Below are positions 5,662 to 45,809 of a DNA stretch of 64,000 bases, in pieces (positions within the stretch are counted from its first letter, which is position 1; the number at the start of each line of letters is the position of its first letter). The DNA comes from a virus: positions 37,597-101,596 of the IMG/VR virus record IMGVR_UViG_3300042868_010125. One strand, written 5' to 3'. Below the pieces are notes generated by a model. The model had not been told where the DNA came from and ran no database searches. It was given only the letters and a program-made list of their open reading frames with translations. A program made the position numbers and the translations under genes.

Positions 5662-5700
5662 CTAGCATATCATTTATTTTTAGGATATGTAAAGTAAGAT

Positions 5701-5741: not shown

Positions 5742-5743
5742 AT

Positions 5744-6043: not shown

Positions 6044-6098
6044 ATGTAATAGTATAGTTTTCTTGCGTAGACTTAGCTCACAATAGAAAAGACGTACT

Positions 6099-6827: not shown

Positions 6828-6865
6828 CCCCCTCCCCCCTTTTTTACTCTCTGCTGCCTCCTCTA

Positions 6866-6930: not shown

Positions 6931-6935
6931 TTCCC

Positions 6936-7778: not shown

Positions 7779-7824
7779 AAACAGTATAAAATAGGACTAG
7801 CAATCGTTTCAATAAGGAGACAAA

Positions 7825-8157
7825 ATGGCACATTGGGCAGAAATAGACGAGGACGGAATCGTTCTTCGTGTAACCGTCGGATCTAACAATGACGCCGACG
7901 AAGGCTATCAGTGGCTCATCGACAACCTAGGTGGAACCTGGGTTAAGACAAGTTACAACACACAAGGCGGAGTTCACACAAACGGTGGAACACCTTTAAG
8001 AAAAAACTACGCGGGTATCGGGTATTCATATGACTCCGAGCGCGATGCGTTTATCCCGCCTAAAGCTAGCTGTCATGACGAGGAAACACTAAACGAGGAC
8101 ACATGTCTTTGGGAGTGCGGTAACGAAGAGCACACCGCGCCTCCACAAATAAGTTAG
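7825..8157 (+). CDS. Small tail-associated structural protein
   Basis: A 110-residue protein of a family often seen beside fibre genes in phages of aquatic bacteria: MAHWAEIDEDGIVLRVTVGSNND, then GGTWVKTSYNTQGG, RKNYAGIGYSYD and a C-terminal CLWECG. It is distantly similar to the 5744 gene. A strong ribosome site, AAGGAGA at 7814-7820, precedes the ATG. It lies between glycine-rich genes 3 and 4, and the fourth starts 14 bases after its stop. Probably a virion or fibre-assembly component. Confidence 0.65.
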   Translation: MAHWAEIDEDGIVLRVTVGSNNDADEGYQWLIDNLGGTWVKTSYNTQGGVHTNGGTPLRKNYAGIGYSYDSERDAFIPPKASCHDEETLNEDTCLWECGNEEHTAPPQIS

Positions 8158-8159
8158 GA

Positions 8160-8165
8160 TAAAAT
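8160..8165 (+). promoter_or_regulatory. -10 box for a leaderless start at 8172
   Basis: TAAAAT at 8160-8165 is followed by six bases and then the ATG at 8172. No usable ribosome site lies between. A transcript starting at the ATG would be leaderless. The same hexamer, six-base gap and ATG pattern recurs at 9159, 13606, 37954, 41637 and, on the minus strand, at 45816. Confidence 0.5.
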
Positions 8166-8171
8166 AAGCCT

Positions 8172-10231: not shown

Positions 10232-10888
10232 ATGACAGAAAATAAAAAGATAGCTTATTGCTATGCAAGAGTATCTACTCAAATGCAGGTTGACGACGGG
10301 GTCAGTCTAGATGCTCAGGAAAAACAACTTAAGTATGCAGCAGAGTCTCAGGGGTATGAGGTAGAGATGCTTCGTGAAGAAGGTCGTTCAGGAAAAAATA
10401 TCACTGGGCGACCTGTATTAACTGCTGCATTAGAGAGTCTTGATAAAGGTGAAGCAGAGGCTTTGTTTGTTACACGTCTCGACAGACTTGCTCGTTCTAC
10501 TAGAGACTTTCTTAGCATTGTCGATCGTTCACATAAGTACGGCTGGCGTCTAGCACTTCTTGATCTTGGTTTAGATACTGCTACGTACCAAGGTCGTTTT
10601 GTTGTAACCATTATGTCTGCAATGGCAGAGATGGAACGTGGAATGATTTCACTTCGGCAAAAAGATGTTCATCAAGATAGACGTGATAATAAAAAAGTAT
10701 GGGGTGTTGATTTAGGACCACTACCTTTAGTAGATAAATCAATTTCAGATAGAATATCTTCTGATAGAGATTTAGGTCTTTCTTATAAATCAATTGCAGA
10801 AAAACTTAATAGCGATGGGGTAAAGACAGTTTTAGGTGGAGTTAAGTGGTATGCATCAACTGTACGACATATTTATTTAAGGAAATAA
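10232..10888 (+). CDS. Serine recombinase (resolvase/invertase family)
   Basis: A 218-residue serine recombinase. The catalytic domain begins YCYARVSTQ with the nucleophile Ser at residue 15, includes RSGKNITGRP, the arginine motif FVTRLDRLARS and the AEMERG E-helix. The C-terminal third (SYKSIAEKLNSDGVKTVLGG, WYASTVRHIYLRK) is a short DNA-binding domain as in resolvases and invertases. It is too short for a large serine integrase. A ribosome site AGAAGGG precedes the ATG. It could resolve phage multimers, invert DNA, or integrate. No crossover sites flanking an invertible segment were recognised nearby. Confidence 0.88.
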   Translation: MTENKKIAYCYARVSTQMQVDDGVSLDAQEKQLKYAAESQGYEVEMLREEGRSGKNITGRPVLTAALESLDKGEAEALFVTRLDRLARSTRDFLSIVDRSHKYGWRLALLDLGLDTATYQGRFVVTIMSAMAEMERGMISLRQKDVHQDRRDNKKVWGVDLGPLPLVDKSISDRISSDRDLGLSYKSIAEKLNSDGVKTVLGGVKWYASTVRHIYLRK

Positions 10889-20976: not shown

Positions 20977-23277
<2,301 letters not shown>

Positions 23278-23293: not shown

Positions 23294-25483
<2,190 letters not shown>

Positions 25484-25576: not shown

Positions 25577-27724
<2,148 letters not shown>

Positions 27725-27840: not shown

Positions 27841-29133
<1,293 letters not shown>

Positions 29134-32500: not shown

Positions 32501-34067
32501 TGCGGTGGGTATAGGTGGAGCGATAAGAACTTCACCTGATGGTGTTACGTGGACCACGCGTACTTCTAATACTACAAGTAGTTTGGATAAAGTTGCCTAT
32601 GGTAATAACACATGGGTAGCAGGAGGATTTACCAGTGGTGGAACTAACAGCATAAGAACATCAACGGATAACGGTGTTACGTGGACTACGCAGGCATCTA
32701 ACTACGGTGCTAACAATATTAACTCTTTACTTTATGGTAATGGAATATTTTTTCTTGCTGCGTCTAGTGGAAATTATAGAACTTCTACTGATGGACTAAC
32801 ATGGGTTACCAGAACATCTCCATTAGGTAGTAGCACCATAACAGCATCTGCTTATGGAAATGGTATATTTATAATTTCTGCTAACTTTGCAACGCGAATT
32901 TCAAGTAACGCTATAGACTGGTACACTCATGGTTCAAATTTTTCTTCTTCTCCTAGTACATGCGTTGTATCTTATGGTAATGGAATATTTTTAGCTGGTA
33001 ACAGCTCTGGTCAACTTTTTTCTTCTACTGACTCAATTTTTTGGACCACACGAACTTCTAACTTTGGATCAAGTGGAATTAGTGCTGTTGCGTATGCAAA
33101 CGGAACGTGGGTCTTGGGAGGCGCGGGGGGAACGCTGCGGACCTCAACTGATAATGCGATAACATGGAATACGCAAACTTCACAGTTTGGTGGAGCTGTA
33201 ATCCAGTCAATTACTTATAGTAATGGAATTTGGGTTGCTGGAGGTGCGAGTGGAACGTTAAGAACTTCAACTGACGCGCTTAACTGGAATACGCAAACTT
33301 CACAGTTTGGAACCAGTGCGATTAGCTCGGTTGCATATGGAAATGGAATTTTTGCTGCAGCAGGTGCGGGTGGAGCGTTAAGAACATCTACTGATGCACT
33401 CAATTGGTATGCTTATGGAATTCAATTTGGATCTTCTACTATTCAGTCTTCTGCCTACGGCAATGGAGTGTACGTAGCAGCTGGTGATGGTGGAACTTTA
33501 AAAACTTCAACTGATCTAATAGTCTGGACGCAACAAACATCACAGTTTGGATCTAGTATAATTCGCTCTGTTGCATATGGTAACGGCACGTGGACAGCGG
33601 TAGGCGCAGGTGGAACACTGCGGACCTCAACGAATAACGGTGTGACGTGGAATACGCAGACGTCAACGTTTGGAACCAGTGATATTCGCTCTATTGCATA
33701 TGGAAATGGCGTGTGGATAGCAGGAGGAGATACATTTGGTACAATTAGTATTTCAAGTGATGCAGTTAATTGGACAACTAGAGAATCAGGATTTAAAAAT
33801 GGTAAAGTTCAATCAGTTGCCTATGGAGATGGCTTATGGACAATTGTAAGTAGTGCTGAGCCTGTCAATAAGATAAGAACATCAACGGATAACGGTGTGA
33901 CATGGAATACACAACATTATACTGGCTCAAGCAGCTTTAACGCAGTTGCCTATGGAAATAATACATGGGTAGCACTTACTCAAGGGCACTTGTACAGATC
34001 TGACTTATTAGTGGGCTATAATCAACCTATAGACCCAAATCTATCTATTGTTGGATGGACACAATGA
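29559..34067 (+). CDS. Giant Asp-box beta-propeller protein, 35 repeats
   Basis: A 1502-residue protein after an AAAGGAG ribosome site. A 75-residue N-terminal region is followed by tandem repeats of about 40 residues, each with a strand (SVAYGNGVWVAGG), a turn and strand (GTLRTSTDALNWNTQTS), the STDNGVTW version being a classic Asp-box (S-x-D-x-G-x-T-W). I counted 35 YGNG-type strands, five sets of seven. This fits five seven-bladed propellers in a row; blades of sialidase or BNR type often bind glycans. No catalytic residues of sialidases are recognised. It probably forms a very large receptor-binding spike. It overlaps the next gene by four bases. Confidence 0.82.
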   Translation: MNYGREDGFNNNTEIVNGEYNPTTLQNERQGYLRFFLKGFEPEDFSLSSVDESYTFSKRSSKSSVATGQLWARETISKTQVLSSVTYGNGVWVAGGGQGSLFISTNGGTVWNVPSSYTSTANNINTLSYGNGVFVAAGASGFFRVSTVETTWSAIGTNTSSGIHAVAYGNGVWVATGVLGILLRSDNLYTWSQPTTSNTSTLNSIFYGNGIWVAGGNSGAVRTSTDSGVTWRGYGSNFGTTAITSIAYGNGTWVAVGASGTLRTSTDALTWNTQTSQFGSTTIFSVAYGNGIFAAVGSAGTLRTSTDAINWNTQTSQFGSTLIQSIAYGNGIFAAVGSAGTLRTSTDALTWNTQTSQFGATAIAAVAYGNGVWVAGGSAGTLRTSTDAINWNTQTSQFGSSGIISIAYGNGIFVAAGDGGTISSSTNPGVVWVSSNSFSTTTFTSITYGNGTFAVLGGSAPSMRTSTNAVTWVSTMPPIKLSGSSGLQSIAYGNGLWVVGGTSGVMAISTGNLVKWKELGSGSSTIHSVAYGNGVWIAGYSAGALRTSTDSAQNWNLVGVDRTGICSIAYGNGVWLVSHAGTGDRQYVISTDNGATWTDTQSAGLNGQQAIQLSFGNGTFVAAITGGVIQASTDDGTTWRNNGTIDLGSSAALSAVAYGSGTWVAGTSSALISSSDSIYWQRRHNPSGVTYSAFGNSVWVATSGTSIRTSVDGISWTLQTSNFGSSTICAVAYGNGTWTAVGAGGTLRTSTDNGVIWNTQTSQFGTTGINAIAYGNGTWVAGGQAGTLRTSTNGGVTWNTQTSTFGTSAISSVAYGNGVFIAGGAGGAIRTSPDGVTWTTRTSNTTTAIQSVAYGNGTWAAGGNGGMIRTSTDNGVTWTTQTGFGTSVISSIGYGNGLFVAAGPSGMMRTSTDNGVTWYQYGPNFGTSAVQSVAYGNGVWVAGGASGTLRTSTDALNWNTQTSQFGSSGISSVAYGNGIFVAVGIGGAIRTSPDGVTWTTRTSNTTSSLDKVAYGNNTWVAGGFTSGGTNSIRTSTDNGVTWTTQASNYGANNINSLLYGNGIFFLAASSGNYRTSTDGLTWVTRTSPLGSSTITASAYGNGIFIISANFATRISSNAIDWYTHGSNFSSSPSTCVVSYGNGIFLAGNSSGQLFSSTDSIFWTTRTSNFGSSGISAVAYANGTWVLGGAGGTLRTSTDNAITWNTQTSQFGGAVIQSITYSNGIWVAGGASGTLRTSTDALNWNTQTSQFGTSAISSVAYGNGIFAAAGAGGALRTSTDALNWYAYGIQFGSSTIQSSAYGNGVYVAAGDGGTLKTSTDLIVWTQQTSQFGSSIIRSVAYGNGTWTAVGAGGTLRTSTNNGVTWNTQTSTFGTSDIRSIAYGNGVWIAGGDTFGTISISSDAVNWTTRESGFKNGKVQSVAYGDGLWTIVSSAEPVNKIRTSTDNGVTWNTQHYTGSSSFNAVAYGNNTWVALTQGHLYRSDLLVGYNQPIDPNLSIVGWTQ

Positions 34068-37000
34068 ATAAAAATATAAGAAAAAACTACTATGATACAG
34101 GTGAAATAGTATTTGGTATTGACTCACCAGGAAGTTCATGGGTAAAACTTGATGGAAGCGTAGTTAAAGTTGATAGTAATTTTTCTAATAAACTTTCTAA
34201 TTCTTCTTTAGCAAATTTAAAATTTTTAAATGATGGAAGTGGACTAAATATATGTGCGGTTGCGTACGGCAACGGTGTCTGGGTAGCTGGAGGTGCATCA
34301 GGAGTACTGCGTACGTCAACAGATGAACTTAACTGGAATACGCAAACTTCACAGTTTGGTTCAAGTACTATTTTTTCAATTGCTTATGGAAATGGAACTT
34401 TCGTTGCTGTAGGCGCGGGTACAGCTTTAAGAACATCAGAAAATGGTATTACATGGACTACGCGAACTTCTACATTTTTTACAGCCATATGTGCTGTTGC
34501 GTATGGTAATGGCGCGTGGATTGCTGTCGGTAGTTCAGCAAGTGTAAGAACATCAACGGATAACGGTGTGACGTGGACAACACAGACATCTAATTACAGC
34601 GCAACTATATGCTCTGTTGCCTACGGAAACGGCACGTGGGTTTTTGGAGGTGTAGGTGGAGGATTACGTACCTCAACTGATAACGGTGTGACGTGGAACA
34701 CGCAAACAACTTTAAACTATTTAGTAACAGGAATTTCTAAAATAGCGTATGGAAATGGAATTTGGGCAGTAGCTTCAATTAACGCAGATGATACTATACA
34801 AACTTCTACTAACCTTATAAACTGGTCTATCCCAAAAACGTATACATCAGGACAAATAGCCAGTTATGCTTTAACATACGCAGATAATAAGTGGTTATTA
34901 GGAGGAATAAACAGTCAAGGAATTATGATTTCTACGGATGCACTTAACTGGAATACGCAGATATCATTAAATAATATAAATTCGATAGTTTACGATGCAG
35001 CTTATGGTAATAATGCATGGGTTGTAGTTGGACTGGGCGTAATTGCAACAACAAAAATATTAACTACTTTTAAAACACCTAATACATATCTCGGTAATGG
35101 TGTATATGGATGGATGAAAATAAAATGAATAATCAAGATTCTAAAAAAGAAGTAGTGTACAAGACTGGTAGTGTTATATATAGAAAAAGTTCATTAGGTT
35201 CACCAGGACCAGGCTGGTTAAATTTAAGTACTACTCAAACTATTAACTCAAATTCTAGACTTGGTAAAATAATTCCTTATTACTCTACTTGGTCTTCAGT
35301 TAATCATACTATTGGCTTAAGTATTATTAATTCTGTTGCTTATGGTAATGGGACATATATAGCAGCAGGTGCAGGAGGAGCGCTAAGGACCTCAACGGAT
35401 AACGGTGTGACGTGGAATACGCAAACTTCACAGTTCGGTGCAAATGGAATTTGTTCTGCTGCATATGGTAATGGAGCTTGGCTTTTGGTGGGAGACGGAG
35501 GAAATGCAAAAACATCACTAGATAATGCGGTAAACTGGATTAATTACGGAGTTAATTTTGGTTCAAGTACTATTTTTTCAACTGCCTATGGTAATGGAAT
35601 TTATGTTGCGGTAGGCGCAGGAGGAGCGCTAAGGACCTCAACGGATAACGGTGTGACGTGGAATACGCAAACTTCACAGTTCGGTGGAACTTCAATTTCT
35701 TCAGTTGCCTATGGTAATGGAGTTTTTGTAGTGGGAGGAGACTCGGCGGTATTAAGAACGTCTACTGATGCAATAAACTGGAACACGCAAACGTCACAGT
35801 TTGGAACAACTGGAATTCGTGCTATCACGTATGGAAACGGCACGTGGGTAGCTGGAGGACAAGCAGGAACGTTAAGAACTTCAACAAACATAACTGTTTG
35901 GAACGCTCATGGAAATCAGTTTGGTGCAACTGCCATATCTGCGGTTGCGTACGGCAACGGTGTCTGGGTAGCTGGAGGTGCGAGTGGAACGTTAAGAACT
36001 TCAACTGACGCGCTTAACTGGAATACGCAGACGTCACAATTTGGTTCAAGTATTATTTATGCAGTCGCGTATGGAAATGGAGTATGGGTTGTAGGAGGCG
36101 CAGGGGGAACGCTGCGGACCTCAACTGACACGCTTAACTGGAATACGCAAACTTCACAGTTTGGAACTAGTATAATTAGTGCAATTGCGTATGGCAACGG
36201 CACGTGGGTAGCGGTGGGTGCGGGTGGAGCGTTAAGAAATTCAACGAATAACGGTGTGACGTGGAATACGCAGACGTCAACGTTTGGAACCAGTGATATT
36301 CGCTCTGTTGCATATGGTAATGGTGTCTTTGTAGTGGGAGGAGCAGGAGGAGCGATAAGAACTTCAACGAATAACGGTGTTACGTGGACCACGCGTACTT
36401 CTAATACTACAAGTAGTTTAAACGCCGTTTCTTATGGTAATGGTGTCTTTATAGCGACAGGAGCAGGAGGAGCGATAAGAACTTCACCTGATGGTGTTAC
36501 GTGGACCACGCGTACTTCTAATACTACAAGTAGTTTAAACGCCGTTTCTTATGGTAATGGTGTGTGGACTGCAGCGTCTTTTTCTGGAGGACTACGGACC
36601 TCAACTGATAACGGTGTAACATGGAATACTCAGACTCCTAACTTTGGTACAAGTGATATTCTTGGTGTTGCGTACGGAAATGGAACTTGGTTACTTGGAG
36701 GAAGTGGTGGAACTACAAGAACATCAACTAACAATGCTATAACTTGGATAGGATACGGTACTAATTTTGGAAGTACTCTTACTATCGATGCAGTTGGGTA
36801 TGGAGGTGGTGTGTGGGTAGCGACAGGATTTGCAGGAACACTGCGGACCTCAACTGACACGCTTAACTGGAATACGCAAACTTCAGAGTTTGGCGGTTCA
36901 AGTGGAATTAGTGCTGTTGCGTATGGTAACGGCACGTGGGTTGCGGGAGGAAGCGCAGGAACGTTAAGAACTTCAACAAACGGCGGTGTGACCTGGAACA

Positions 37001-37840
37001 CGCAAACGTCACAGTTTGGAACAAGTTCGATCGTAGCCGTTGCGTATGCAAACGGAACGTGGGTCTTGGGAGGCGCGGGGGGAACGCTGCGGACCTCAAC
37101 TGACACTATAAACTGGAATACACAAACTTCAGAGTTTGGAACAAGTGGGATTAACTCGGTTGCATATGGAAATGGAATTTTTGTTGCGGCAGGTGCGAGT
37201 GGAAAACTGCGCTCCTCAACTGACACTATAAACTGGAGATCTTATGGACCTAACTTTGGCACATCAGCTGTCCAGTCAGTCGCGTATGGAAATGGAGTAT
37301 GGGTTGCTGTAGGAATACAAGGTATGCTGCACTCCTCGACTGACGCGCTTAACTGGAATACGCAGACGTCACAATTTGGTTCAAGTACTATATGTGCAGT
37401 TGCTTATGGAAATGGAACTTTCATTGCGGTGGGTGCTAGTGGAACGTTAAGAACTTCAACTGACGCGCTTAACTGGAATACGCAAACTTCACAGTTTGGA
37501 ACCAGTGCGATTAGCTCGGTTGCATATGGAAATGGTGTGTGGGCCGCAGGAGGTGCAGGAGGAGCGCTAAGGACCTCAACGGATAACGGTGTGACGTGGA
37601 ACACGCAAAACTCTAACATTCCTATAACGTTAGGTATTTCTTCAATAGCCTACGGAGATGGAATATTTATTTTGGTAAGCTTAAATGGAGGAGTAAGAAC
37701 GTCTTTAGATGGAATAAACTGGACAACACAGGTATACTCGTACGCAGGCGCGGACACACTTGAGCCTGTTTCTAGGGTAGCGTATGGGAATAACTCTTGG
37801 ATTATCGCAGGAGGATCAAACCAGTCACTTTACATGGCTA
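29810..37840 (+). repeat. Asp-box repeat field across three genes (35 + 7 + 21 blades)
   Basis: Roughly 120-base repeats encode the propeller blades of the three genes at 29559, 34064 and 35125. Units are often identical over tens of bases within and between genes, for example the run encoding GTLRTSTDALNWNTQTSQFG near 30335, 32395, 33250 and 37440. Such identity implies recent duplication or gene conversion. The region is also likely to be misassembled by short-read methods. Confidence 0.88.
34064..35128 (+). CDS. Single Asp-box beta-propeller protein, 7 repeats
   Basis: A 354-residue paralogue. I start it at the ATG at 34064, which overlaps the previous stop (ATGA); the upstream ATG at 34055 is less likely. 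The N-terminus (YYDTGEIVFGIDSPGSSWVKLDGSV) is shared in form with the next gene, followed by exactly seven propeller strands by my count. It ends YLGNGVYGWMKIK. A single set of seven is what one seven-bladed propeller needs. Confidence 0.82.
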   Translation: MNKNIRKNYYDTGEIVFGIDSPGSSWVKLDGSVVKVDSNFSNKLSNSSLANLKFLNDGSGLNICAVAYGNGVWVAGGASGVLRTSTDELNWNTQTSQFGSSTIFSIAYGNGTFVAVGAGTALRTSENGITWTTRTSTFFTAICAVAYGNGAWIAVGSSASVRTSTDNGVTWTTQTSNYSATICSVAYGNGTWVFGGVGGGLRTSTDNGVTWNTQTTLNYLVTGISKIAYGNGIWAVASINADDTIQTSTNLINWSIPKTYTSGQIASYALTYADNKWLLGGINSQGIMISTDALNWNTQISLNNINSIVYDAAYGNNAWVVVGLGVIATTKILTTFKTPNTYLGNGVYGWMKIK

Positions 37841-37926
37841 AAAACAGCAAATCTATCCCTAAAACTTACCATGTACTTACTCCTATAGAGGCTCCAGTAG
37901 GATACACTCCTTGGATTAAAACCTAA
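35125..37926 (+). CDS. Asp-box beta-propeller protein, 21 repeats
   Basis: A 933-residue paralogue, starting at the ATG at 35125 in an ATGA overlap with the previous gene. The N-terminus (VVYKTGSVIYRKSSLGSPGPGWLNLS) resembles that of the 34064 protein. I counted 21 propeller strands, three sets of seven. The C-terminal strand pair before the end is of the YGDG then YGNN type, as in the 29559 protein, and it ends EAPVGYTPWIKT. It is predicted to form three seven-bladed propellers. Confidence 0.82.
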   Translation: MNNQDSKKEVVYKTGSVIYRKSSLGSPGPGWLNLSTTQTINSNSRLGKIIPYYSTWSSVNHTIGLSIINSVAYGNGTYIAAGAGGALRTSTDNGVTWNTQTSQFGANGICSAAYGNGAWLLVGDGGNAKTSLDNAVNWINYGVNFGSSTIFSTAYGNGIYVAVGAGGALRTSTDNGVTWNTQTSQFGGTSISSVAYGNGVFVVGGDSAVLRTSTDAINWNTQTSQFGTTGIRAITYGNGTWVAGGQAGTLRTSTNITVWNAHGNQFGATAISAVAYGNGVWVAGGASGTLRTSTDALNWNTQTSQFGSSIIYAVAYGNGVWVVGGAGGTLRTSTDTLNWNTQTSQFGTSIISAIAYGNGTWVAVGAGGALRNSTNNGVTWNTQTSTFGTSDIRSVAYGNGVFVVGGAGGAIRTSTNNGVTWTTRTSNTTSSLNAVSYGNGVFIATGAGGAIRTSPDGVTWTTRTSNTTSSLNAVSYGNGVWTAASFSGGLRTSTDNGVTWNTQTPNFGTSDILGVAYGNGTWLLGGSGGTTRTSTNNAITWIGYGTNFGSTLTIDAVGYGGGVWVATGFAGTLRTSTDTLNWNTQTSEFGGSSGISAVAYGNGTWVAGGSAGTLRTSTNGGVTWNTQTSQFGTSSIVAVAYANGTWVLGGAGGTLRTSTDTINWNTQTSEFGTSGINSVAYGNGIFVAAGASGKLRSSTDTINWRSYGPNFGTSAVQSVAYGNGVWVAVGIQGMLHSSTDALNWNTQTSQFGSSTICAVAYGNGTFIAVGASGTLRTSTDALNWNTQTSQFGTSAISSVAYGNGVWAAGGAGGALRTSTDNGVTWNTQNSNIPITLGISSIAYGDGIFILVSLNGGVRTSLDGINWTTQVYSYAGADTLEPVSRVAYGNNSWIIAGGSNQSLYMAKNSKSIPKTYHVLTPIEAPVGYTPWIKT

Positions 37927-37965: not shown

Positions 37966-38721
37966 ATGCTAAAATTGGACACTATACGTAGTACAACTTT
38001 GTTTGTCGCGACACCGTGCTACGGTGGACTAGTAAATGAAAAATACGTACAGTCCTTACTTCAACTAGTTTCTAAGTCAGCACAGTATGGAATGAAGTTA
38101 GGATACTTTACACGCTCTAATGAAAGTTTAATCACAAGAGCAAGAAATGATCTTGTTTTTACTTTTCTACAAACTCCAGCAACCCACCTAATGTTTATTG
38201 ATGCTGATATAAACTTTAATCCAGACGATGTATTTAAGATGATTAGCATGAATAAAGACGTTATTACTGGAGCGTATCCTACAAAAATGATAGATTGGCA
38301 AAAAATGGCTAGCTCTGCGTCAAATGATGTTAAAACGCTACAGTCTAATGCAATTCGCTATTCTTCAGGTGTAAATAAGTTAACTAGTACTTCTAGCACA
38401 ACTGAAAATGGATTATTAGAAATATATGATGGTGCTACTGGTTTTATGCTTATTAAAAGACCAGTTATAGAAAAACTTATAAAAAGTTATCCTGAAACAC
38501 GCTATATTCCAGAGGTTTATGATGAAGAGTCTCAGAAAGGAATGTCAAAATACGCTATTTTTGATACCATGATTGATAATGGAAGGTATCTCAGCGAGGA
38601 CTACACGTTTTGTCGTCGTTGGCAAAATATTGGTGGAAAAGTATACGTTGACCCAACAATAGTCTTAGACCATGTAGGAACTTACACTTTTAAAGGTGGA
38701 AATATATCGGAGGATAACTAA
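37966..38721 (+). CDS. GT-A fold glycosyltransferase
   Basis: A 251-residue protein opening LFVATPCYGGLVNEKYVQSL, with SRARNDL-type RARNDLVFTFL and the metal/nucleotide-sugar motif FIDADINF (about residues 74-81). A further D-x-x-YTFCRRW region near the C-terminus is typical of the acceptor or metal site. It is cytosolic, with no signal or membrane segment. It is the first of a six-gene plus-strand sugar cluster that directly follows the propeller genes. Donor and acceptor sugars cannot be told. Confidence 0.78.
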   Translation: MLKLDTIRSTTLFVATPCYGGLVNEKYVQSLLQLVSKSAQYGMKLGYFTRSNESLITRARNDLVFTFLQTPATHLMFIDADINFNPDDVFKMISMNKDVITGAYPTKMIDWQKMASSASNDVKTLQSNAIRYSSGVNKLTSTSSTTENGLLEIYDGATGFMLIKRPVIEKLIKSYPETRYIPEVYDEESQKGMSKYAIFDTMIDNGRYLSEDYTFCRRWQNIGGKVYVDPTIVLDHVGTYTFKGGNISEDN

Positions 38722-38725
38722 ATTT

Positions 38726-39403
38726 ATGGACACACAAATACCTCATTTTAATGTACTTATAGCCACACCTGGGCACTCAATGCAACAAGCTTATGTGCGT
38801 AGTCTTGCAAAAACTATTTACTTTTTTGATCAAAACCAAATTACTTGGAATTTTTTAACTGAGTACTCATCTTTAGTTGCTGACGCAAGAGAGAAAACTA
38901 TCGGAGGACTAGGGTATCAAGATCCTAATGACTCTCGTCCAGGCCATGGATTATATAGTTACGATCGAATACTTTGGATCGACTCCGACATCGAGTGGGA
39001 ACCAGAGGACGTACATAAGTTACTTAGTAATGACGTTGAAGTTGTTTCTGGCTGTTACATGCTTGCAAATGAAGAAGTGACAGTGTACCCAAAGGTTTTA
39101 CGTGGAGGGATGACAAAAGAAGAAATAATGTCAAGAAAAAAACCTTTTGCTGTAAGAGGAGTTGGTTTTGGATTTTTAGCTGTAAAACAAGGTATATTTG
39201 AAAAAATAAAGCGTCCTTGGTTTTCACAAACGGAAGTAGAAGTAATAAATGAAGAAACTGGTGCTGTAGAGTATAAATTTCCTTTAATGGGAGAAGATCT
39301 TTCCTGGTGTGAAAAAGTTCACAGGATGGGAGTTACTATATGGGTAGATCCACTTGTTAGAGTAAATCATCACAAGCAAGTTAAAATTGAGTGGCCAAAG
39401 TAG
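38726..39403 (+). CDS. GT-A fold glycosyltransferase
   Basis: A 225-residue protein: HFNVLIATPGHSMQQAYVRSL, EYSSLVADARE, ILWIDSDIEW with the DxD-like motif (about residues 79-81), and GVGFGFLAVKQGIFEKIKRPWF. It closes DLSWCEKVHRMGVTIWVDP. I prefer the ATG at 38726, with GGAGG 12 bases upstream, to a GTG at 38696 inside the previous gene. It is a paralogue of the gene at 40932 (KQGxFExIKRPWF in both). Confidence 0.78.
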   Translation: MDTQIPHFNVLIATPGHSMQQAYVRSLAKTIYFFDQNQITWNFLTEYSSLVADAREKTIGGLGYQDPNDSRPGHGLYSYDRILWIDSDIEWEPEDVHKLLSNDVEVVSGCYMLANEEVTVYPKVLRGGMTKEEIMSRKKPFAVRGVGFGFLAVKQGIFEKIKRPWFSQTEVEVINEETGAVEYKFPLMGEDLSWCEKVHRMGVTIWVDPLVRVNHHKQVKIEWPK

Positions 39404-39457: not shown

Positions 39458-40378
39458 ATGATTGACCCTAAAGGTGGAGAAGATATTATGCTAGAAAACC
39501 TAGCAAAATATGTTGATCTTGATAAGTATAATGTAAACATCATTAATTCTAAGTGTTATAGAGATTTAGTTGATATGGATAAGCGCAATATCTTATGGCA
39601 GCATATCCCCGCGAATCAAAGTGTTGTTCAAGGAATTAAAGATAAATATTTTAATAGATTAATAGATGCATATGTGTATGTCTCACACTGGCAGCATGAA
39701 AAATTTCGTTATATTCATCAAATTCATCTAGAAAATGCGTATGTAGTTAGAAATGCAATAGAATCAATTAGTTATGTAGAAAAGCCAAAAGAAAAAATAA
39801 AACTTATATATACTTCTATGCCATATCGTGGTTTAGATGTTTTACTTGACTCTTTTGAGCTTTTAAACAGAGATGATATAGAATTAGATATTTATTCTTC
39901 TACTCAGATATATGGCCAAGAATATGTAGAGTATGAAGGTAATAAATATGAGCAACTTTTTGATCGCGCTCGCAGTATGAAAAATGTTAACTATATCGGA
40001 TATGCTCCACATAAAGATGTTATCTTAGCTCTTCAAAAAGCTCATATCTTTGCTTATCCTTGTATTTTTGAAGAGACAGCCTGTCTTTCCATGATAGAAG
40101 CAGGCGCAGCTGGATGTAACTTAGTTACAACAAACATTGGAGGATTACCAGAAACAGGTTCTATATATGCAAAGCTAGTTCCAATTCAAGCAGATGCCAA
40201 AATTCTTATTGCAAATTACGCCAAGGCACTAGAAGAGACTATAAATAATTATTGGTCACTTGAAAATCAAGAATTTATTAAAGAGCAATCTGATTTTTTT
40301 AATAAACACTATAGCTGGGAAACTAGAAAATATGAGTGGATTAAGATATTAGAATCTCTTCCAGATCAGGTTAAATAA
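39458..40378 (+). CDS. GT4-family (GT-B fold) glycosyltransferase
   Basis: A 306-residue protein with the C-terminal nucleotide-sugar region of retaining GT4 enzymes: IKLIYTSMPYRGLDVLLDSF, VNYIGYAPHKDVILALQKAH, and the E-x7-E-type signature FEETACLSMIEAGAAG followed by TTNIGGLPETG. The N-terminal domain is shorter than usual; it starts MIDPKGGEDIMLENLAKY after an AGAGAGGAAA ribosome site. The first domain may be trimmed compared with cellular homologues. Its stop overlaps the next start by one base. Confidence 0.8.
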   Translation: MIDPKGGEDIMLENLAKYVDLDKYNVNIINSKCYRDLVDMDKRNILWQHIPANQSVVQGIKDKYFNRLIDAYVYVSHWQHEKFRYIHQIHLENAYVVRNAIESISYVEKPKEKIKLIYTSMPYRGLDVLLDSFELLNRDDIELDIYSSTQIYGQEYVEYEGNKYEQLFDRARSMKNVNYIGYAPHKDVILALQKAHIFAYPCIFEETACLSMIEAGAAGCNLVTTNIGGLPETGSIYAKLVPIQADAKILIANYAKALEETINNYWSLENQEFIKEQSDFFNKHYSWETRKYEWIKILESLPDQVK

Positions 40379-40896
40379 TGCCTTCTTCACACCCAGAAAA
40401 TAAAAGTTGGCTGCTTAAGAAAATTAAGCAGATTAAACCTAAAAATATTTTAGACGTTGGTGCTGGAGAAGGAACTTATGGAGAATTTATAAAATCATTT
40501 ATAAATTCTAACATTGTTATTGATGCAATAGAAGTTTGGCAACCATATATAGATCATTTTAATTTAAAATCAATATATGATAATGTTTATCAAAAAGACG
40601 TAAGAGTATACGATAATTTTGATTATGATATAGTAATTTTTGGTGATGTTTTAGAGCACATGTCAGCAAATGATGCTATTCAACTTTGGAATAGATGTTC
40701 TAAACAAGCAAAGTACGCGATAATATCTATACCTATAACTCATATGCCACAAGGGGCTTTCAATAATAATCCATATGAGATTCATGTGGAAGAAGACTGG
40801 AACTCTGAGCTAGTCTTAGAAAAGTTTCATAGTATTATTGACTATAAACTTTTTCAATTTACAGGAGCATTTATCGCAAAGTTTACTGGTAATTAG
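40378..40896 (+). CDS. SAM-dependent methyltransferase
   Basis: A 172-residue class I methyltransferase. Motif I is ILDVGAGEGTYGEF (about residues 22-35), followed by the acidic IEVW and, later, DIVIFGDVLEHMSANDA (motif post-I/II). It overlaps the GT4 gene by one base and lies inside the sugar cluster, so methylation of a sugar in the glycan is plausible. There is no DNA-target motif. Confidence 0.78.
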   Translation: MPSSHPENKSWLLKKIKQIKPKNILDVGAGEGTYGEFIKSFINSNIVIDAIEVWQPYIDHFNLKSIYDNVYQKDVRVYDNFDYDIVIFGDVLEHMSANDAIQLWNRCSKQAKYAIISIPITHMPQGAFNNNPYEIHVEEDWNSELVLEKFHSIIDYKLFQFTGAFIAKFTGN

Positions 40897-40931: not shown

Positions 40932-41615
40932 ATGAAAAAACACATTAATGTTCTTATTGCAACTCCAGGAAGATCAATGGAGGCAGAGTATGTAAAAAGT
41001 TTAATTTCAACAATAACTTATCTTAAAGACGTTGGAATTAGCTATTTATTTTTAAATGAGTACTCTTCTGCTGTAAGTACTGCTAGAGAAGCTACAGCAA
41101 TGGGTTCTAAATTTTTAGACGCATTTAATCAATCTCCAGTTAGAGGAGAAGTTACATATGATAAATTCTTTTGGATAGATTCTGATATATCTTGGACTAT
41201 AGCTGATTTTATGAATATGTATAGTTCAGATAAAGATATAGTTTCAGGAATATATATAGATCAATTTGGTACTCCTATGTTTGCAATAGACACTCCTGCA
41301 GGACAAGAAATTTCTGCTTATAAAATTATTACAGAACAAGAATATCGTGAGATATCATCTGCTGGATTTGGGTTTATTTGTGTAAAACAAGGTGTTTTTG
41401 AAAATATAAAAAGACCTTGGTTTGAGACTCATTTTTCAAAAATACATGGTAGTAACGGAGAAGAGTTTTTAGTCCCACTTGCTGAAGATTTTTCTTGGTG
41501 CAGAAAGGCTCAAGAAGCTGGATATAAAATATTTTTAGATCCTAGAGTTCAAGTTGCTCATCATAAGAAAGTAATGATATTCCCAAAAGATCTTATACGC
41601 AATCCAGAATTATAG
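40932..41615 (+). CDS. GT-A fold glycosyltransferase, paralogue of the 38726 gene
   Basis: A 227-residue protein: HINVLIATPGRSMEAEYVKSL, EYSSAVSTAREAT, FFWIDSDISW, AGFGFICVKQGVFENIKRPWF, then DFSWCRKAQEAGYKIFLDP. Nearly every block matches the 38726 protein, so the two arose by duplication and then diverged. They may act on successive sugars of one glycan. Confidence 0.78.
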   Translation: MKKHINVLIATPGRSMEAEYVKSLISTITYLKDVGISYLFLNEYSSAVSTAREATAMGSKFLDAFNQSPVRGEVTYDKFFWIDSDISWTIADFMNMYSSDKDIVSGIYIDQFGTPMFAIDTPAGQEISAYKIITEQEYREISSAGFGFICVKQGVFENIKRPWFETHFSKIHGSNGEEFLVPLAEDFSWCRKAQEAGYKIFLDPRVQVAHHKKVMIFPKDLIRNPEL

Positions 41616-41648: not shown

Positions 41649-42689
41649 ATGATTAAAGTTGCCGCATACGCTATTGCCCTGAACGAGGAGAAGCACGCTC
41701 AGCGTTGGGCAGACACCACTAAAGATGCAGACTTTAGATTAGTCTGTGACACAGGCTCTACAGATAAAACAGTAGAGATATTAAGAAGCAATGGGATTAT
41801 TGTCTATGAAATAAGTGTAAAGCCTTGGAGATTTGATGTTGCAAGAAATACTGCTCAGAGTTTATTACCAGCAGATATAGATGTGTGTCTAAGTTTAGAT
41901 TTAGATGAAACAGTAGATAAAGACTTTTTTAAAAAAGTAAAAGAGCACTGGGCGCCAGGGGCTAACAAAGGTTGGTGTGATTTTGACACTGGTCATACTT
42001 GGCTAGGTGCTCGCTTGCACGCTAGAGATGGTGTGTATTGGAAATATCCTATTCATGAAGTATTTGTTCCTTCCCTTGATACACCTTTGATGAGTTGCAC
42101 TATTCCTACCAAGATGTACCACAAACCAGATAATACAAAATCTCGCGGGCAATATATGACAATGTTAATTGCTGCAAGTAAAGAGTTTGGTGAAGACCAT
42201 CGAATTTGGGTATATCTGTGTCGTGAATATTACTATTACAAGATGTGGGATTTAGTAATTAGTAGCGCTCAAAAAGTTAGTGATTTTAGTAAAGACTGGT
42301 TCGTGGAACGTGCAGCAGTATGTAGATTTGCATCTGAAGCATGCAGAAATTTAGGAAGACTTGAAGAAGCACACACGTGGGCAGATAAAGCAATTTCTAT
42401 CGACCCATGCGGTGAGGCGTATTATGAAAAAGTACGTTGCTACTATGAACAAAGTGATTGGGGTGGGGTGTGGGAAACTTGCAAACTAGTTGCTACATGC
42501 CAACCAACTAATCACTACCTATCATCTGAAGCTCTATGGAATTGGATGCTAGATGATATGAGAGCGCTATCTGCTCATTACCTAGGTGATAAAGCAAAGG
42601 CAGTAGAGTATGGAGAAAAAGCACTTATAGGAAATCCAACGGATGCCAGATTAATAAATAATATGGTTTTTTATAAGCAAGGTATCTAA
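41649..42689 (+). CDS. GT2-type glycosyltransferase with C-terminal helical repeats
   Basis: A 346-residue protein. The GT2 domain opens VAAYAIALNEEKHAQRW, then LVCDTGSTDKTVEIL and the DxD-type SLDLDE (about residues 78-83). The following 180 residues are helical, TPR-like (CRNLGRLEEAHTWADKAISI, LGDKAKAVEYGEKALIG). This GT2-plus-TPR form is known in bacterial glycosyltransferases of tail-fibre and surface-glycan clusters. Its stop overlaps the start of the next gene by one base. Confidence 0.8.
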   Translation: MIKVAAYAIALNEEKHAQRWADTTKDADFRLVCDTGSTDKTVEILRSNGIIVYEISVKPWRFDVARNTAQSLLPADIDVCLSLDLDETVDKDFFKKVKEHWAPGANKGWCDFDTGHTWLGARLHARDGVYWKYPIHEVFVPSLDTPLMSCTIPTKMYHKPDNTKSRGQYMTMLIAASKEFGEDHRIWVYLCREYYYYKMWDLVISSAQKVSDFSKDWFVERAAVCRFASEACRNLGRLEEAHTWADKAISIDPCGEAYYEKVRCYYEQSDWGGVWETCKLVATCQPTNHYLSSEALWNWMLDDMRALSAHYLGDKAKAVEYGEKALIGNPTDARLINNMVFYKQGI

Positions 42690-43555
42690 TGACTCAGCCA
42701 AATGTATTTTTAGCCCTTCTTGTAAAACAAAAAGAAGCCGTTCTTCCATTATTTCTAGAAAGTCTCAACAACTGGGACTACCCTAAAGAAAACATATTTA
42801 TCTACATCAGAACTAATAACAACACAGATAACACAAAAGGGCTTTTAGAAGAGTGGATAGAAGAGTACGGTGATAAATATAAAGGGCTAATCTACAACAG
42901 CGAAGATGTTCCACAAAAAGTAGAGCAGTACGATGTTCATTTCTGGAATGGTGAAAGGTTTAGAGTCTTAGGAAAAATTCGTCAAGAGAGTATGAACCAA
43001 GCCTTACTCACAGATTGTGAATACTACTTTGTAGTAGATATAGATAACTTTTTGTTCCCAGAAACACTCAAAGAATTAGTCAAACTAGACCTACCTATAG
43101 TTGCCCCATTTTTAAGATACGCGGTTGCTTTCGGTGAAAATGCTGATACTCCTGTAGAGGCTGCTAAGCGAGAAGGTCACATGAGTATGTATTACTCAAA
43201 CTATCATGACAAGGTAGATGACTTTGGTTCAATTATTGCAGAAGATGTTTACTACAAAATTTTAAATCAAGAGGTAAAAGGACTAATTGAGTGCATGTGC
43301 GTTCACTGCACCTACCTAATTAAAAGAGAGCATCTCTCTGAACTTACTTACCTAGAGGAGTCAGACCGCTGGGAGTACATGGTTTTTTCTAACTCTGCCA
43401 GAGACAAAGGGATACCTCAGTACATAGACAATAGAACTATATATGGCGTACTCACATTAAGTGAAAATCTTGGGGCCTCTAGATGGTGGTTTAACTATCT
43501 AAAAGATGAAAAAAATAGAACAGAAAAATATAAATCTATTATTAATTTTAGTTAA
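42689..43555 (+). CDS. Glycosyltransferase resembling procollagen galactosyltransferases
   Basis: A 288-residue protein. The N-terminus (PNVFLALLVKQKEAVLPLFL, then DYPKENIFIYIRTNNN-TDNTKGLLEEWI) has the order and spacing of the first domain of procollagen galactosyltransferases (COLGALT): the DYPxExIxIYIxxNxNxDNT block, then RxxRQxSxNQALLTDCEYYFVVDIDN with a DxD-type site at about residues 115-119, then a conserved IVAPFLRYA and CVHCTYLIKREHL region. No signal peptide is present. Its presence beside four collagen-like genes is suggestive. The assignment rests on my recall of that family's pattern and needs a profile search. Confidence 0.62.
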   Translation: MTQPNVFLALLVKQKEAVLPLFLESLNNWDYPKENIFIYIRTNNNTDNTKGLLEEWIEEYGDKYKGLIYNSEDVPQKVEQYDVHFWNGERFRVLGKIRQESMNQALLTDCEYYFVVDIDNFLFPETLKELVKLDLPIVAPFLRYAVAFGENADTPVEAAKREGHMSMYYSNYHDKVDDFGSIIAEDVYYKILNQEVKGLIECMCVHCTYLIKREHLSELTYLEESDRWEYMVFSNSARDKGIPQYIDNRTIYGVLTLSENLGASRWWFNYLKDEKNRTEKYKSIINFS

Positions 43556-44126
43556 GAGTTACAGTACGTTTTGGTTTCCAACCAACCCTTTCAAACTCTA
43601 AAAGAGTAGTTACATCTAAATTAAATGGGCTCAGCGACAAATCTAGGCATCTATAGTCACCATTATTAATATCTCTATTAACTAAATCTGCCGAGGCAAA
43701 ATCATTAGTTACTAAAGAAAATTTTGAAGACTTAATAATTTTTACAAGTATGTCAATCACATCTTTATTACATAAATGCTGCAGAACATCTTTGCATATT
43801 ATTAAATCTACTTTTGGTATTTCATAAGTAGTTATGTCATGACTAATAAACTCTACGTTAGAAGCAGAGTAAGAATTATTGTTAGACTCTATGACAGACT
43901 CTACAACATCTACACCTAGGTATGAAACAGATGATAAATCAAGAAACTTAGAGAACTGCCAGTCCCCACATCCAAGGTCAAGCACAGTTTTTATTTCAGG
44001 TTTATTAATATATTTTTGTAAAACATCTACATACTCTTTTACATTTTCTATCTTAGAGCCAGCTCCAGAGCCCCCATGCCAGAGGTCTTCTTTGTAAATT
44101 TTAGAAAATACCTCTTTGTTATTCAT
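43548..44126 (-). CDS. SAM-dependent methyltransferase, class I
   Basis: A 192-residue protein, starting at the ATG at 44126, one base after the previous gene's stop; a longer frame to 44174 lies inside that gene. Motif I VLDLGCGDWQFSKFL is followed by YLGVDVVESVIESN and DLIICKDVLQHLCNKDV. It overlaps the plus-strand gene at 42689 tail-to-tail by eight bases. It lies with the epimerase and so is likely to modify a sugar. Confidence 0.78.
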   Translation of the reverse strand: MNNKEVFSKIYKEDLWHGGSGAGSKIENVKEYVDVLQKYINKPEIKTVLDLGCGDWQFSKFLDLSSVSYLGVDVVESVIESNNNSYSASNVEFISHDITTYEIPKVDLIICKDVLQHLCNKDVIDILVKIIKSSKFSLVTNDFASADLVNRDINNGDYRCLDLSLSPFNLDVTTLLEFERVGWKPKRTVTLN

Positions 44127-44127
44127 T

Positions 44128-45132
44128 TTACATAAGCCTATCTGTCCATGTTTTCGGGGTTTTGTCGGTAACAAACTCTAGAGGCAGGTGATAATTAAAC
44201 TCCCTAGCGCCTTTAGACTTAATCCAATTTACTAATTCTACTAACCCAGAGTCTAACGAAGTAGTAGTTTTGTAATTTAAAAGCTCTCTTGCAAGATTGG
44301 CTGAACAATTAGCGTGAAAGACTTCTTGAGGCCTTCCTGGCATATAAATTGACTCTAACTTAAAATCAAGAATTATTGATAGTTTATAGGCCAACTCATT
44401 TATAGTAATAAACTCTTCATCTGGACCTATATTAATAGTTCTCCCATGAGCAACATCGGTCTCACATGCAATCATTAGAGGGTCAATGACATCTTGCATA
44501 AATGAAAAGCATCTTTTTTGCTCGCCATTTCCATAGATAATAGGTTGCTTGCCTTGAAGCATTCTATTTATCATAATCGAGGCTACGTTTCTGTAAGGGT
44601 CATCAAATTTTTGCCTAGGGCCAATAATGTTGTGTGGAACCAGTATTACGTAATTAAGCCCGTGAGTATCTGCAATATTTTTTATCATAAGTTCAGCCGC
44701 ATATTTTGCAATCCCATACGGATCCTGAGGCTTAGGAGTCATTGACTCAACGAATGGAACTACATCTTGAGTCCCATATCTTGCCATAGAAGATAGGTGA
44801 ACAATTTTTTTAACATTTGCCTTTACACAAGCACTCATTATGTTTGTAGTTATCTGCATAGTGTTTCTGACAACTAGAGAGGGGGAAAATACGGAAAGTC
44901 CTTCATAGGCAGTACACGCACTGTGCACTACCAAATCTACATCTTTAAAAAGTGGCTGAATCAGTTCTAAATTATCTAAATCTAAATTATTAAAGTCAAC
45001 ACCTGATGGAACGTTTTCTTTATAGCCACCTAATAAATTATCTATTCCTACAACCTCGTAGCCTTTAGCAAGAAAAGAATCTGCTAAGTGACTTCCCATA
45101 AATCCTGCTACACCAGTTATTAGAACCTTCAT
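44128..45132 (-). CDS. NAD-dependent nucleotide-sugar epimerase/dehydratase (extended SDR)
   Basis: A 334-residue protein with the Rossmann motif GVAGFMGS (residues 7-14), DNLLGGYKENV, the downstream LSSMARYG, and YGIAKYA with the catalytic Tyr-x3-Lys. It then has the PHNIIGPRQKFDDPYRNV and GEQKRCFSFMQDV blocks of UDP-glucose-4-epimerase-like enzymes. It probably supplies or alters the nucleotide sugar used by the neighbouring glycosyltransferases. Its start overlaps the stop of the 45129 gene by four bases (ATGA). Confidence 0.85.
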   Translation of the reverse strand: MKVLITGVAGFMGSHLADSFLAKGYEVVGIDNLLGGYKENVPSGVDFNNLDLDNLELIQPLFKDVDLVVHSACTAYEGLSVFSPSLVVRNTMQITTNIMSACVKANVKKIVHLSSMARYGTQDVVPFVESMTPKPQDPYGIAKYAAELMIKNIADTHGLNYVILVPHNIIGPRQKFDDPYRNVASIMINRMLQGKQPIIYGNGEQKRCFSFMQDVIDPLMIACETDVAHGRTINIGPDEEFITINELAYKLSIILDFKLESIYMPGRPQEVFHANCSANLARELLNYKTTTSLDSGLVELVNWIKSKGAREFNYHLPLEFVTDKTPKTWTDRLM

Positions 45133-45809
45133 TTATTAATCGCCTCTTTTAATTTTGTAATATCACTTTGAAAATTTGTCATTTTATATCTAGCCAAAGC
45201 GTTTCTATCTCGCTCATACATCCAAGGAGAGTTTATTGCATCATATAAATCATCAACAGGTGCTTTACGAACAGCGTAGTGGTGATGCTCTAAAATAACT
45301 TCAGGGCAATACCTTAATGTTCCCATAAAATCACCTAATAGTTTCCAAAAATTATCTATATATAAGTGTAGTAACTCGGGAGGGGCTAAATATCCAAGAG
45401 TTTTTACAATATTTGAATCAAAACAAGTTCCATTGCTAGGCAAACGAGCACTCTGAGCCAAATCATCTGGGTACGAAATACCCATAGGCACATCTTTTAT
45501 TGCATTAATAAGGTTTTCATCCCACTTAGGTGTCATCACAGTTGTGTCATCGGCTGCCCAGAGAATGTAGTCATAATCATTCATATATTTATTTGCCATA
45601 CGATTTAGTTTTTCGTTTACACCTAATTGCTCTGGTTTAGGTCCTATCTCGTACTGAACACCACTCATTCTTGGGTATAAAGCATGATCGTCTTCATCTA
45701 AACAAGCAATTATGTCCGAGACCGTTGAGTGCTGTCTTAAAGACTCCACTGCTCTAACAAACCTTTTAGGGCGAGTTCTAGATGGAACTAGTATCACCGA
45801 GCGAGTCAT
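45129..45809 (-). CDS. Small GT2-like glycosyltransferase
   Basis: A 226-residue protein opening SVILVPSRTRPKRFVRAVES, with CLDEDDH and WAADDT motifs (about residues 36-42 and 84-89) in the place of a DxD site. The tail HHHYAVRKAPVDDLYD is common in phage and cyanobacterial GTs of this kind. It starts a minus-strand operon with the epimerase and methyltransferase, from what appears to be a leaderless promoter at 45816-45821. Confidence 0.72.
   Translation of the reverse strand: MTRSVILVPSRTRPKRFVRAVESLRQHSTVSDIIACLDEDDHALYPRMSGVQYEIGPKPEQLGVNEKLNRMANKYMNDYDYILWAADDTTVMTPKWDENLINAIKDVPMGISYPDDLAQSARLPSNGTCFDSNIVKTLGYLAPPELLHLYIDNFWKLLGDFMGTLRYCPEVILEHHHYAVRKAPVDDLYDAINSPWMYERDRNALARYKMTNFQSDITKLKEAINK

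What the first reader, a model, noticed from the sequence alone, without database searches (positions are those of the whole stretch)
42689..43555. A collagen-galactosyltransferase-like enzyme beside four collagen-like genes
The protein shows the order of conserved blocks I recall for procollagen galactosyltransferases, including a DYPKENIFIYIR-type strand, RQESMNQALL and VVDIDN. The phage also encodes four collagen-like fibres of G-X-T type. In Bacillus BclA, G-X-T collagen repeats are O-glycosylated on Thr, so glycosylation of phage collagen shafts by this enzyme is a testable idea. The seen part is the block pattern and proximity; the function is inference.
Basis: partly seen in the sequence, partly recalled or inferred. 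Interest (0 to 1): 0.88.

Follow-up and report, generated by a model that had tools for sequence, protein, structure and literature searches.

The report
Phage enzymes likely sugar-coating collagen-like fibres
A lake bacterial virus carries a gene related to one half of the human enzyme that puts sugar on collagen; related genes in bacteria often lie near collagen-like genes, which suggests, but does not prove, that these microbes and viruses sugar-coat their own collagen-like proteins.

Summary
The 288-aa protein at 42689-43555 is a clear relative of procollagen galactosyltransferase 1 (COLGALT1): E 7e-16 by sequence, 1e-24 by profile, Z 30.6 over 253 residues by fold. The relation is to COLGALT1's N-terminal domain, described as catalytically dormant in animals, not to the catalytic GT25 domain, which this protein lacks. 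The phage's collagen stretches hold no lysine in 324 triplets but threonine at 76% of Y positions, so threonine is the plausible acceptor, not hydroxylysine.

(1) The gene is coupled (TAATG overlap) to a GT2+TPR gene laid out like C. difficile SgtA, which puts GlcNAc on collagen-like threonines. In 19 of 25 bacterial relatives the two are one polypeptide; Mesorhizobium adds GT25, giving the COLGALT1 domain order. (2) 15 of 25 bacterial relatives lie within 10 kb of a collagen-like gene, against 0 of 20 control windows.

In phages the evidence is weaker: related phages often have collagen genes without this gene (19 of 28), and the tree-aware test has no power. Donor, acceptor and activity are inference. 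Best reading: second enzyme of a two-gene threonine O-glycosylation module for collagen-like tail fibres (about 0.58).

The parts
42689..43555 (+). P0001: stand-alone GT-A domain related to COLGALT1 N-terminal (GalT-N/GT1) domain; D117-x-D119-N120 and H206 kept in all 42 aligned rows
41649..42689 (+). GT2 + TPR gene (346 aa), same layout as C. difficile SgtA; its stop TAA overlaps the P0001 start ATG by one base (TAATG)
   Evidence: Pfam TPR_2 and TPR_14 above cut-off, Glycos_transf_2 just below it; phrog_13126; sequence; directly upstream of the P0001 homologue in 57 of 68 viral loci; a GT2 domain is fused to the P0001-like domain in 19 of 25 bacterial loci
20977..23277 (+). collagen-like tail fibre 1 (766 aa, 101 GXY triplets in runs, Thr at Y in 75)
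23294..25483 (+). collagen-like protein 2 (729 aa, 63 triplets, Thr at Y in 51)
25586..27724 (+). collagen-like protein 3 (712 aa, 97 triplets, Thr at Y in 73)
27841..29133 (+). collagen-like tail fibre 4 (430 aa, 63 triplets, Thr at Y in 48)
37966..38721 (+). phrog_1574 protein (function unknown), GT-like by weak matches only
   Evidence: E 6.6e-49 to phrog_1574; weak Anp1 match
38696..39403 (+). phrog_1574 protein (function unknown), GT-like by weak matches only
39458..40378 (+). GT4-type glycosyltransferase (Glycos_transf_1)
   Evidence: E 2.7e-14
40378..40896 (+). methyltransferase-like (below Pfam cut-offs)
40932..41615 (+). phrog_1574 protein (function unknown), GT-like by weak PHROG match only
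43548..44174 (-). SAM methyltransferase, convergent with P0001
   Evidence: Methyltransf_31 E 2.8e-9
44128..45132 (-). NAD-dependent nucleotide-sugar epimerase/dehydratase
   Evidence: Epimerase E 4.7e-53
45129..45809 (-). glycosyltransferase (phrog_14945)
   Evidence: E 3.2e-40

Best explanation
P0001 is a metal-dependent GT-A glycosyltransferase of the family to which the N-terminal domain of animal COLGALT1 and the accessory domain of LH3 also belong. It is the second enzyme of a two-gene module: the coupled upstream GT2+TPR protein (SgtA/GmaR-like) puts a first sugar on threonines of the Gly-X-Thr stretches of the tail fibres, and P0001 adds the next sugar or acts on the same peptide. Other cassette enzymes (GT4, epimerase, methyltransferases) may lengthen or cap the glycan. 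Likely use: stiffening, hydrating and protecting the collagen shafts, or varying the virion surface. Shown here: homology, fold, retained DxD and His, gene coupling, bacterial fusion, bacterial closeness to collagen genes, Thr-rich and Lys-free collagen stretches. Inferred: catalysis, donor sugar, order of action, acceptor, use.
For: COLGALT1 is the best match by sequence and by fold: Z 30.6, 253 aligned, rmsd 2.3, against 21.4 for Mnn9 and about 17 for GT2 enzymes, on a model of pLDDT 94.3. D117, D119, N120 and H206 are kept in 42 of 42 aligned rows; the first three lie in no search seed, H206 in one of the six alternative seeds only. TAATG overlap with the GT2+TPR gene; that partner is detected in 62 of 68 viral loci, directly upstream in 57 (many near-copies). 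19 of 25 bacterial relatives have an N-terminal GT2-like part in frame with the P0001-like domain (Pfam-confirmed in the 6 scanned); the closest solved structure of that part in L079 is GmaR (E 4e-10), by recall the Listeria flagellin O-GlcNAc transferase. SgtA, with the same GT+TPR layout, adds beta-O-GlcNAc to Thr of BclA3 collagen repeats (PMC7157674, passages). Collagen-like gene within 10 kb in 15 of 25 bacterial loci against 0 of 20 regularly spaced 20-kb windows of four such genomes; PF01391 in 24 of 25 of the genomes. In 249 genomes of one order, 7 of 7 GT+ genomes are collagen+ against 96 of 242 without. 247 of 324 Y positions are Thr, 0 of X or Y is Lys.
Against: No activity shown. 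The closest animal domains are inactive in their enzymes (PMC13382579). Among 28 terminase-related phages without P0001, 19 have collagen genes, so P0001 is not needed for collagen fibres. The phage association of the GT2+TPR gene with collagen (17 of 17 with it, 4 of 13 without) shrinks to 3 tree-independent pairs, without significance. Ten of 25 bacterial loci have no collagen gene in reach: five are cut short by a contig end on at least one side (L070, L077, L082, L090, L094), five have about 10 kb on both sides (L074, L087, L089, L091, L092). Not all bacterial neighbours are Thr-rich: Thr at Y is 34-53% in four loci, and the two Methylobacter ones hold 3 and 5 Lys. Four divergent phage loci (L066-L069) show no partner nearby at tblastn E 1e-6, though L066's record has one elsewhere (G015). 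The phage GT2+TPR protein is only weakly like the bacterial fused part (hhalign probability 96.9 over 85 columns) and GmaR (E 0.0034). The bacterial test did not correct for species relatedness.
Confidence: 0.58

Rival explanations
1. The cassette, P0001 included, modifies a host surface polymer (wall glycan, S-layer or glycolipid) to exclude other phages or to change receptors; presence of collagen genes in the same phage is incidental.
For: Phage glycosyltransferases are often read this way (PMC7029224, passages; PMC10202952, passages, which also proposes DNA protection). The cassette holds several GT-like genes and an epimerase. Many related phages have collagen genes without P0001.
Against: It does not explain the bacterial closeness to Gly-X-Thr genes or the fusion with a GT2 part whose best solved match is GmaR.
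Confidence: 0.2
2. P0001 is a non-catalytic companion: like COLGALT1 GalT-N and LH3 AC it binds metal and nucleotide, or the collagen strand, and supports the GT2+TPR enzyme.
For: Closest relatives by fold are domains described as dormant. It is mostly encoded next to, or fused with, a plausible catalytic GT. The N-terminal DXD of human COLGALT1 was essential for its activity (PMC3244457, passages), so a conserved DxD does not by itself prove catalysis in this domain.
Against: DxD-N and His kept in all 42 aligned rows; six of 25 bacterial relatives are stand-alone ORFs.
Confidence: 0.15
3. P0001 glycosylates another virion protein (capsid or tail tube), as reported for some mycobacteriophages (recalled; an announcement suggests it for phage Maravista, listing and start of abstract seen).
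For: Actinophage background (WhiB-like gene).
Against: No known capsid-glycosylating enzyme was compared here; the bacterial relatives lie near collagen genes in contigs not shown to hold virion genes.
Confidence: 0.07

Closest known systems
Human COLGALT1/GLT25D1
   Same: P0001 matches its N-terminal domain almost end to end; a Mesorhizobium relative aligns over both domains (24-441, E 7e-42)
   Different: P0001 has no GT25 domain; lysine is absent from the phage collagen triplets; the animal N-terminal domain is described as dormant (PMC13382579)
LH3/PLOD3 accessory domain and the accessory part of mimivirus R699
   Same: fold (Z 26.7 and 21.8)
   Different: parts of enzymes that work on hydroxylysine (PMC6082870, PMC11838735, passages); no PF13640 match in this phage record
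Clostridioides difficile SgtA with BclA3
   Same: GT+TPR enzyme encoded beside a collagen-like gene; acts on Thr of the collagen repeats (PMC7157674, passages)
   Different: works without a second enzyme in the assays seen; no COLGALT-type partner is mentioned in the passages seen; SgtA itself was not compared by sequence
Mimivirus L230
   Same: virus-encoded enzyme that glycosylates viral collagen (PMC9614988, passages)
   Different: acts on hydroxylysine with glucose; giant virus of amoebae
Yeast Mnn9 / Pfam Anp1 (GT62)
   Same: next fold in rank outside the collagen enzymes and R699 (Z 21.4); weak Pfam match
   Different: P0001 is below Pfam's cut-off (25.9 against 28.8 bits)

Membership tests
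COLGALT/GLT25D procollagen galactosyltransferase | N-terminal GalT-N (GT1) domain | tested here: met
COLGALT/GLT25D procollagen galactosyltransferase | C-terminal catalytic GT25 domain (PF01755) | tested here: not met
   no match in P0001 at E up to 1; present as fusion in Mesorhizobium and as overlapping next gene in L070
COLGALT/GLT25D procollagen galactosyltransferase | acceptor hydroxylysine in Gly-X-Lys | tested here: not met
   0 Lys in 324 triplets of the four fibres; PF13640 not found in the record. Holds if the fibres are the substrate
COLGALT/GLT25D procollagen galactosyltransferase | transfers galactose from UDP-Gal | not testable with these tools
   needs an assay
SgtA-type threonine O-glycosylation of collagen-like proteins | GT+TPR enzyme encoded immediately beside the collagen-like gene | tested here: inconclusive
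   GT2+TPR gene is in the same phage but 12.5 kb from the last collagen ORF; in DSL-LC01 it lies 3 kb downstream of annotated collagen genes
SgtA-type threonine O-glycosylation of collagen-like proteins | Thr-rich Gly-X-Thr repeats | tested here: met
   247 of 324
SgtA-type threonine O-glycosylation of collagen-like proteins | sequence relation to SgtA itself | not tested
   SgtA sequence not at hand; GmaR turned up instead
SgtA-type threonine O-glycosylation of collagen-like proteins | HexNAc transfer to Thr | not testable with these tools
   needs an assay
Anp1/Mnn9 (PF03452) | score above Pfam's curated cut-off | tested here: not met
   25.9 against 28.8 bits; Mesorhizobium L079 passes (40.8 bits)
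GT2 (PF00535, PF13704) | score above Pfam's curated cut-off | tested here: not met
   17.6 against 23.3 and 21 against 27.5 bits

The most novel reading that the evidence does not exclude
P0001-type domains are working prokaryotic collagen-modifying glycosyltransferases, and the dormant N-terminal domain of animal COLGALT1 is their descendant: the GT1+GT25 collagen enzyme arose in bacteria that glycosylate Gly-X-Thr collagens (Mesorhizobium-type GT2+GT1+GT25 proteins), reached animals and switched from threonine to hydroxylysine, while lake actinophages kept GT1 with its GT2+TPR partner to coat their tail fibres.
Probability: 0.25. Interest if true: 0.9.

Novelty: new variant of a known kind. 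Interest (0 to 1): 0.76.

Why it matters
In the papers seen, glycosylation of collagen-like proteins outside animals is described for few systems (BclA-type spore proteins, mimivirus). A module found in phages, Alpha- and Gammaproteobacteria, joined in Mesorhizobium with the second COLGALT domain and often near Gly-X-Thr genes, would give a general enzymology for prokaryotic collagen glycosylation, a concrete role for some unexplained phage glycosyltransferases, and a testable origin for a dormant domain of an animal collagen enzyme.

Tried and rejected
Hydroxylysine galactosylation of the fibres: rejected for the collagen stretches, no Lys in the triplets. Plain phage co-occurrence as proof: 15 of 16 GT+ records of 40 kb or more have collagen (three of the 16, the window's own among them, carry the identical gene), but so do 19 of 28 GT- relatives (Fisher 0.05); the exception G010 has the gene at its contig end. 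The GT2+TPR/collagen association in phages looked strong (Fisher 5e-5) but rests on 3 independent pairs. GenBank phages with a hit of the GT2+TPR protein: 53 records, of which 7 were examined; 7 of 7 have PF01391 over the cut-off, against 4 of 11 (6 of 11 at E 1e-3) jumbo phages without the gene, picked by me from memory (Fisher 0.01). Five of the six jumbo ones share a DNA ligase upstream, so they are not independent; minor evidence. Absence of a family from the VIA list was not used. A first model from 9 close rows was poor (pLDDT 65) and was replaced. No P0001 relative was found in 50,697 GenBank phage records at E 1e-3, in PHROGs at 0.1 or in NCBIfam at 0.1. Print: the searches (7 papers listed; 5; 15 listed of 49) showed, by title and start of abstract plus passages of a few, no paper on phage or bacterial COLGALT-type enzymes near collagen-like genes; the library is open access only, so this is weak. 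The invariance of RTNNNTD, WNGERFR and SDRWEYM in A2 is partly by construction (search seeds) and was not used.

Full report
What is there. The ORF 42689-43555 is open, starts with ATG and encodes 288 aa. The window is bases 37,597-101,596 of a 101.6-kb virus record. A WhiB-like gene, a large terminase (76% to Actinomycetia phage DSL-LC01 from a lake sample) and PHROG matches point to a tailed phage, probably of freshwater Actinomycetota (host is inference).

Family. phmmer against PDB sequences: COLGALT1 E 7.3e-16, LH3 2.7e-6. A 9-row profile: COLGALT1 1.3e-24, over 2-149 and a second stretch 169-256, including VVDIDN/VDADN and VHCTYL/VHSTFL. Pfam gives only sub-threshold Anp1, GT2-type and CAP59 matches; PHROGs and NCBIfam give none up to E 0.1. 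An AlphaFold2 model from a 42-row alignment has pLDDT 94.3, pTM 0.92. Fold comparison: COLGALT1 residues 49-321 Z 30.6 (253 aligned, rmsd 2.3), LH3 293-542 Z 26.7, mimivirus R699 21.8, Mnn9 21.4, GT2 enzymes about 17. So P0001 is of the COLGALT1 N-terminal domain type. In the animal enzyme the C-terminal domain is catalytic and this one is described as dormant (PMC13382579, section 5 read); yet a DXD at 166-168 was essential for activity (PMC3244457, passages). That paper puts 166-168 in the N-terminal domain, whereas PMC13382579 names 461-463 as the GalT-N motif; I could not settle this, as the two 2025 structure papers are not held.

Relatives. 68 viral loci and 25 bacterial loci, many viral ones near-copies. 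D117, D119, N120 and H206 are kept in all 42 aligned rows; D117, D119 and N120 lie in no search seed, H206 in one of the six seeds. In a tree the phage genes plus one actinobacterial MAG gene (L070) stand apart from the other bacterial ones on a starred branch; the program warns of long branches.

Partner. The upstream gene 41649-42689 (TPR above Pfam cut-off, GT2 just below, phrog_13126) overlaps P0001 by one base, TAATG. Among 68 viral loci tblastn finds it in 62: directly upstream (3-38 nt) in 57 and convergent at 633 nt in 5. Of the other six, two contigs begin at or inside the P0001 gene and four divergent loci show none nearby; the record of one of these four (L066) has one elsewhere. 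In bacteria, 19 of 25 relatives carry an N-terminal GT2-like part in the same frame (read from the N-terminal sequences; Pfam-confirmed in the six scanned); six are stand-alone. For L079 its best solved match is GmaR, E 4e-10. Phage partner against bacterial part: hhalign probability 96.9, E 1.9e-10 over 85 columns. Mesorhizobium proteins continue into GT25 (PF01755, E 6.5e-16 to 4.8e-18 in the three of seven scanned), and L079's part from the P0001-like domain on aligns with COLGALT1 24-441, E 7e-42. L070 has a GT25 gene overlapping the P0001-like gene (E 2e-11). SgtA of C. difficile has the same GT+TPR layout, lies beside bclA3 and adds beta-O-GlcNAc to Thr of its collagen repeats (PMC7157674, passages).

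Acceptor. The four fibres hold 324 GXY triplets in runs of at least four: Thr at Y in 247, Ser in 10, Lys at X or Y in 0. No PF13640 match in the record. In the bacterial neighbours Thr at Y ranges from 34% to 100%, at or above 95% in 10 of 15 loci and 34-53% in four; the two Methylobacter genes hold 3 and 5 Lys.

Co-occurrence in bacteria. A collagen-like gene (at least 12 triplets in runs of six or more in one frame) lies within 10 kb in 15 of 25 loci, against 0 of 20 regularly spaced 20-kb windows from four GT+ genomes (13 of the 20 from two Mesorhizobium genomes). The 15 include six from Mesorhizobium and two from Methylobacter, so about nine lineages. Of the ten without, five are cut by a contig end and five have about 10 kb on both sides. 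PF01391 is in 24 of 25 of these genomes. In an even draw of 249 genomes of the Mesorhizobium order, 7 have the GT and all 7 have collagen, against 96 of 242 without; with ten or more matches, 5 of 7 against 4 of 242 (Fisher 0.0018 and 3e-7). Leaving out three genomes already known from the scan: 4 of 4 and 3 of 4 (p 0.026 and 6e-5); of these four, three have a collagen gene within 10 kb of the GT. Species relatedness was not corrected.

Co-occurrence in phages. Of 33 records with the GT given to the search (out of 69 available, the own one included) 28 have PF01391. Of the 30 terminase relatives of 40 kb or more among the 80 loci kept (of 440 found), 2 have P0001, 21 have collagen, 17 have the GT2+TPR gene; all 17 have collagen against 4 of the 13 without. 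On the terminase tree this is three independent pairs, none opposite, not significant. In DSL-LC01 the GT2+TPR gene follows two annotated collagen genes, a hypothetical gene and an annotated halogenase.

Reading. The GT2+TPR enzyme most likely primes threonines of the collagen shafts, and P0001 extends or assists. Shown: homology, coupling, fusion, bacterial closeness, Thr-rich and Lys-free repeats. Inferred: catalysis, sugar, order, acceptor. A host-polymer target and a non-catalytic role remain open. As a member of COLGALT it fails two tested features (GT25 domain, Lys acceptor); 'works on collagen like COLGALT' stays plausible.

Print. Full-text searches of the open-access library showed no description of such phage or bacterial enzymes (listings, and passages of a few). 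Nanopelagicales phages are reported with glycosyltransferases and collagen-like proteins; DNA protection or superinfection exclusion is proposed for the former (PMC10202952, passages).

Noticed in passing
L079 8789-11593; also L073, L075, L078, L081-L083: Mesorhizobium proteins of about 930 aa (819 in L075) with GT2-like + COLGALT1-N-like + GT25-like parts (Pfam scan of the GT25 part in three of seven), six of seven near Gly-X-Thr genes; L075's collagen ORF also has a DUF4347 domain.
   Followed up: partly
L070 5207-6816: Contig of an actinobacterial MAG with a P0001 homologue overlapping a GT25 gene: a split COLGALT-like layout outside phages.
   Followed up: partly
L071 8795-11869, L077 2-2902, L086 1586-4594: P0001-like domain with further C-terminal parts: sulfotransferase in L077 by Pfam; L071 and L086 unidentified by Pfam, guessed by appearance only.
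   Followed up: partly
L220 (DSL-LC01) 535-7077: Lake phage record with two annotated collagen genes, an annotated tryptophan halogenase and the GT2+TPR gene in one run.
   Followed up: partly
window 29559-37926: Three proteins built of repeats like RTSTDNGVTWNTQTSQFGTS between the fibres and the cassette; possibly beta-propeller-like (guess).
   Followed up: no
window 3268-9038: Several glycine-rich proteins that begin MPxLG, on the + strand.
   Followed up: no
window 1035-2277; L069 4483-5548: What looks like a C5 DNA methyltransferase reads as two overlapping ORFs, in this phage and in a divergent relative; two genes, a frameshift site or chance.
   Followed up: no
window 10971-13610: Long protein with a tandem PVDTEP stretch, after a serine-recombinase-like ORF at 10232-10888 (by appearance).
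   Followed up: no
phages PaBG, Lu11, HRDY3, NCTB, Alexandra, JA29 (L221-L226): Jumbo phages with a distant relative of the GT2+TPR gene, 6 of 6 examined holding collagen-like repeats.
   Followed up: partly
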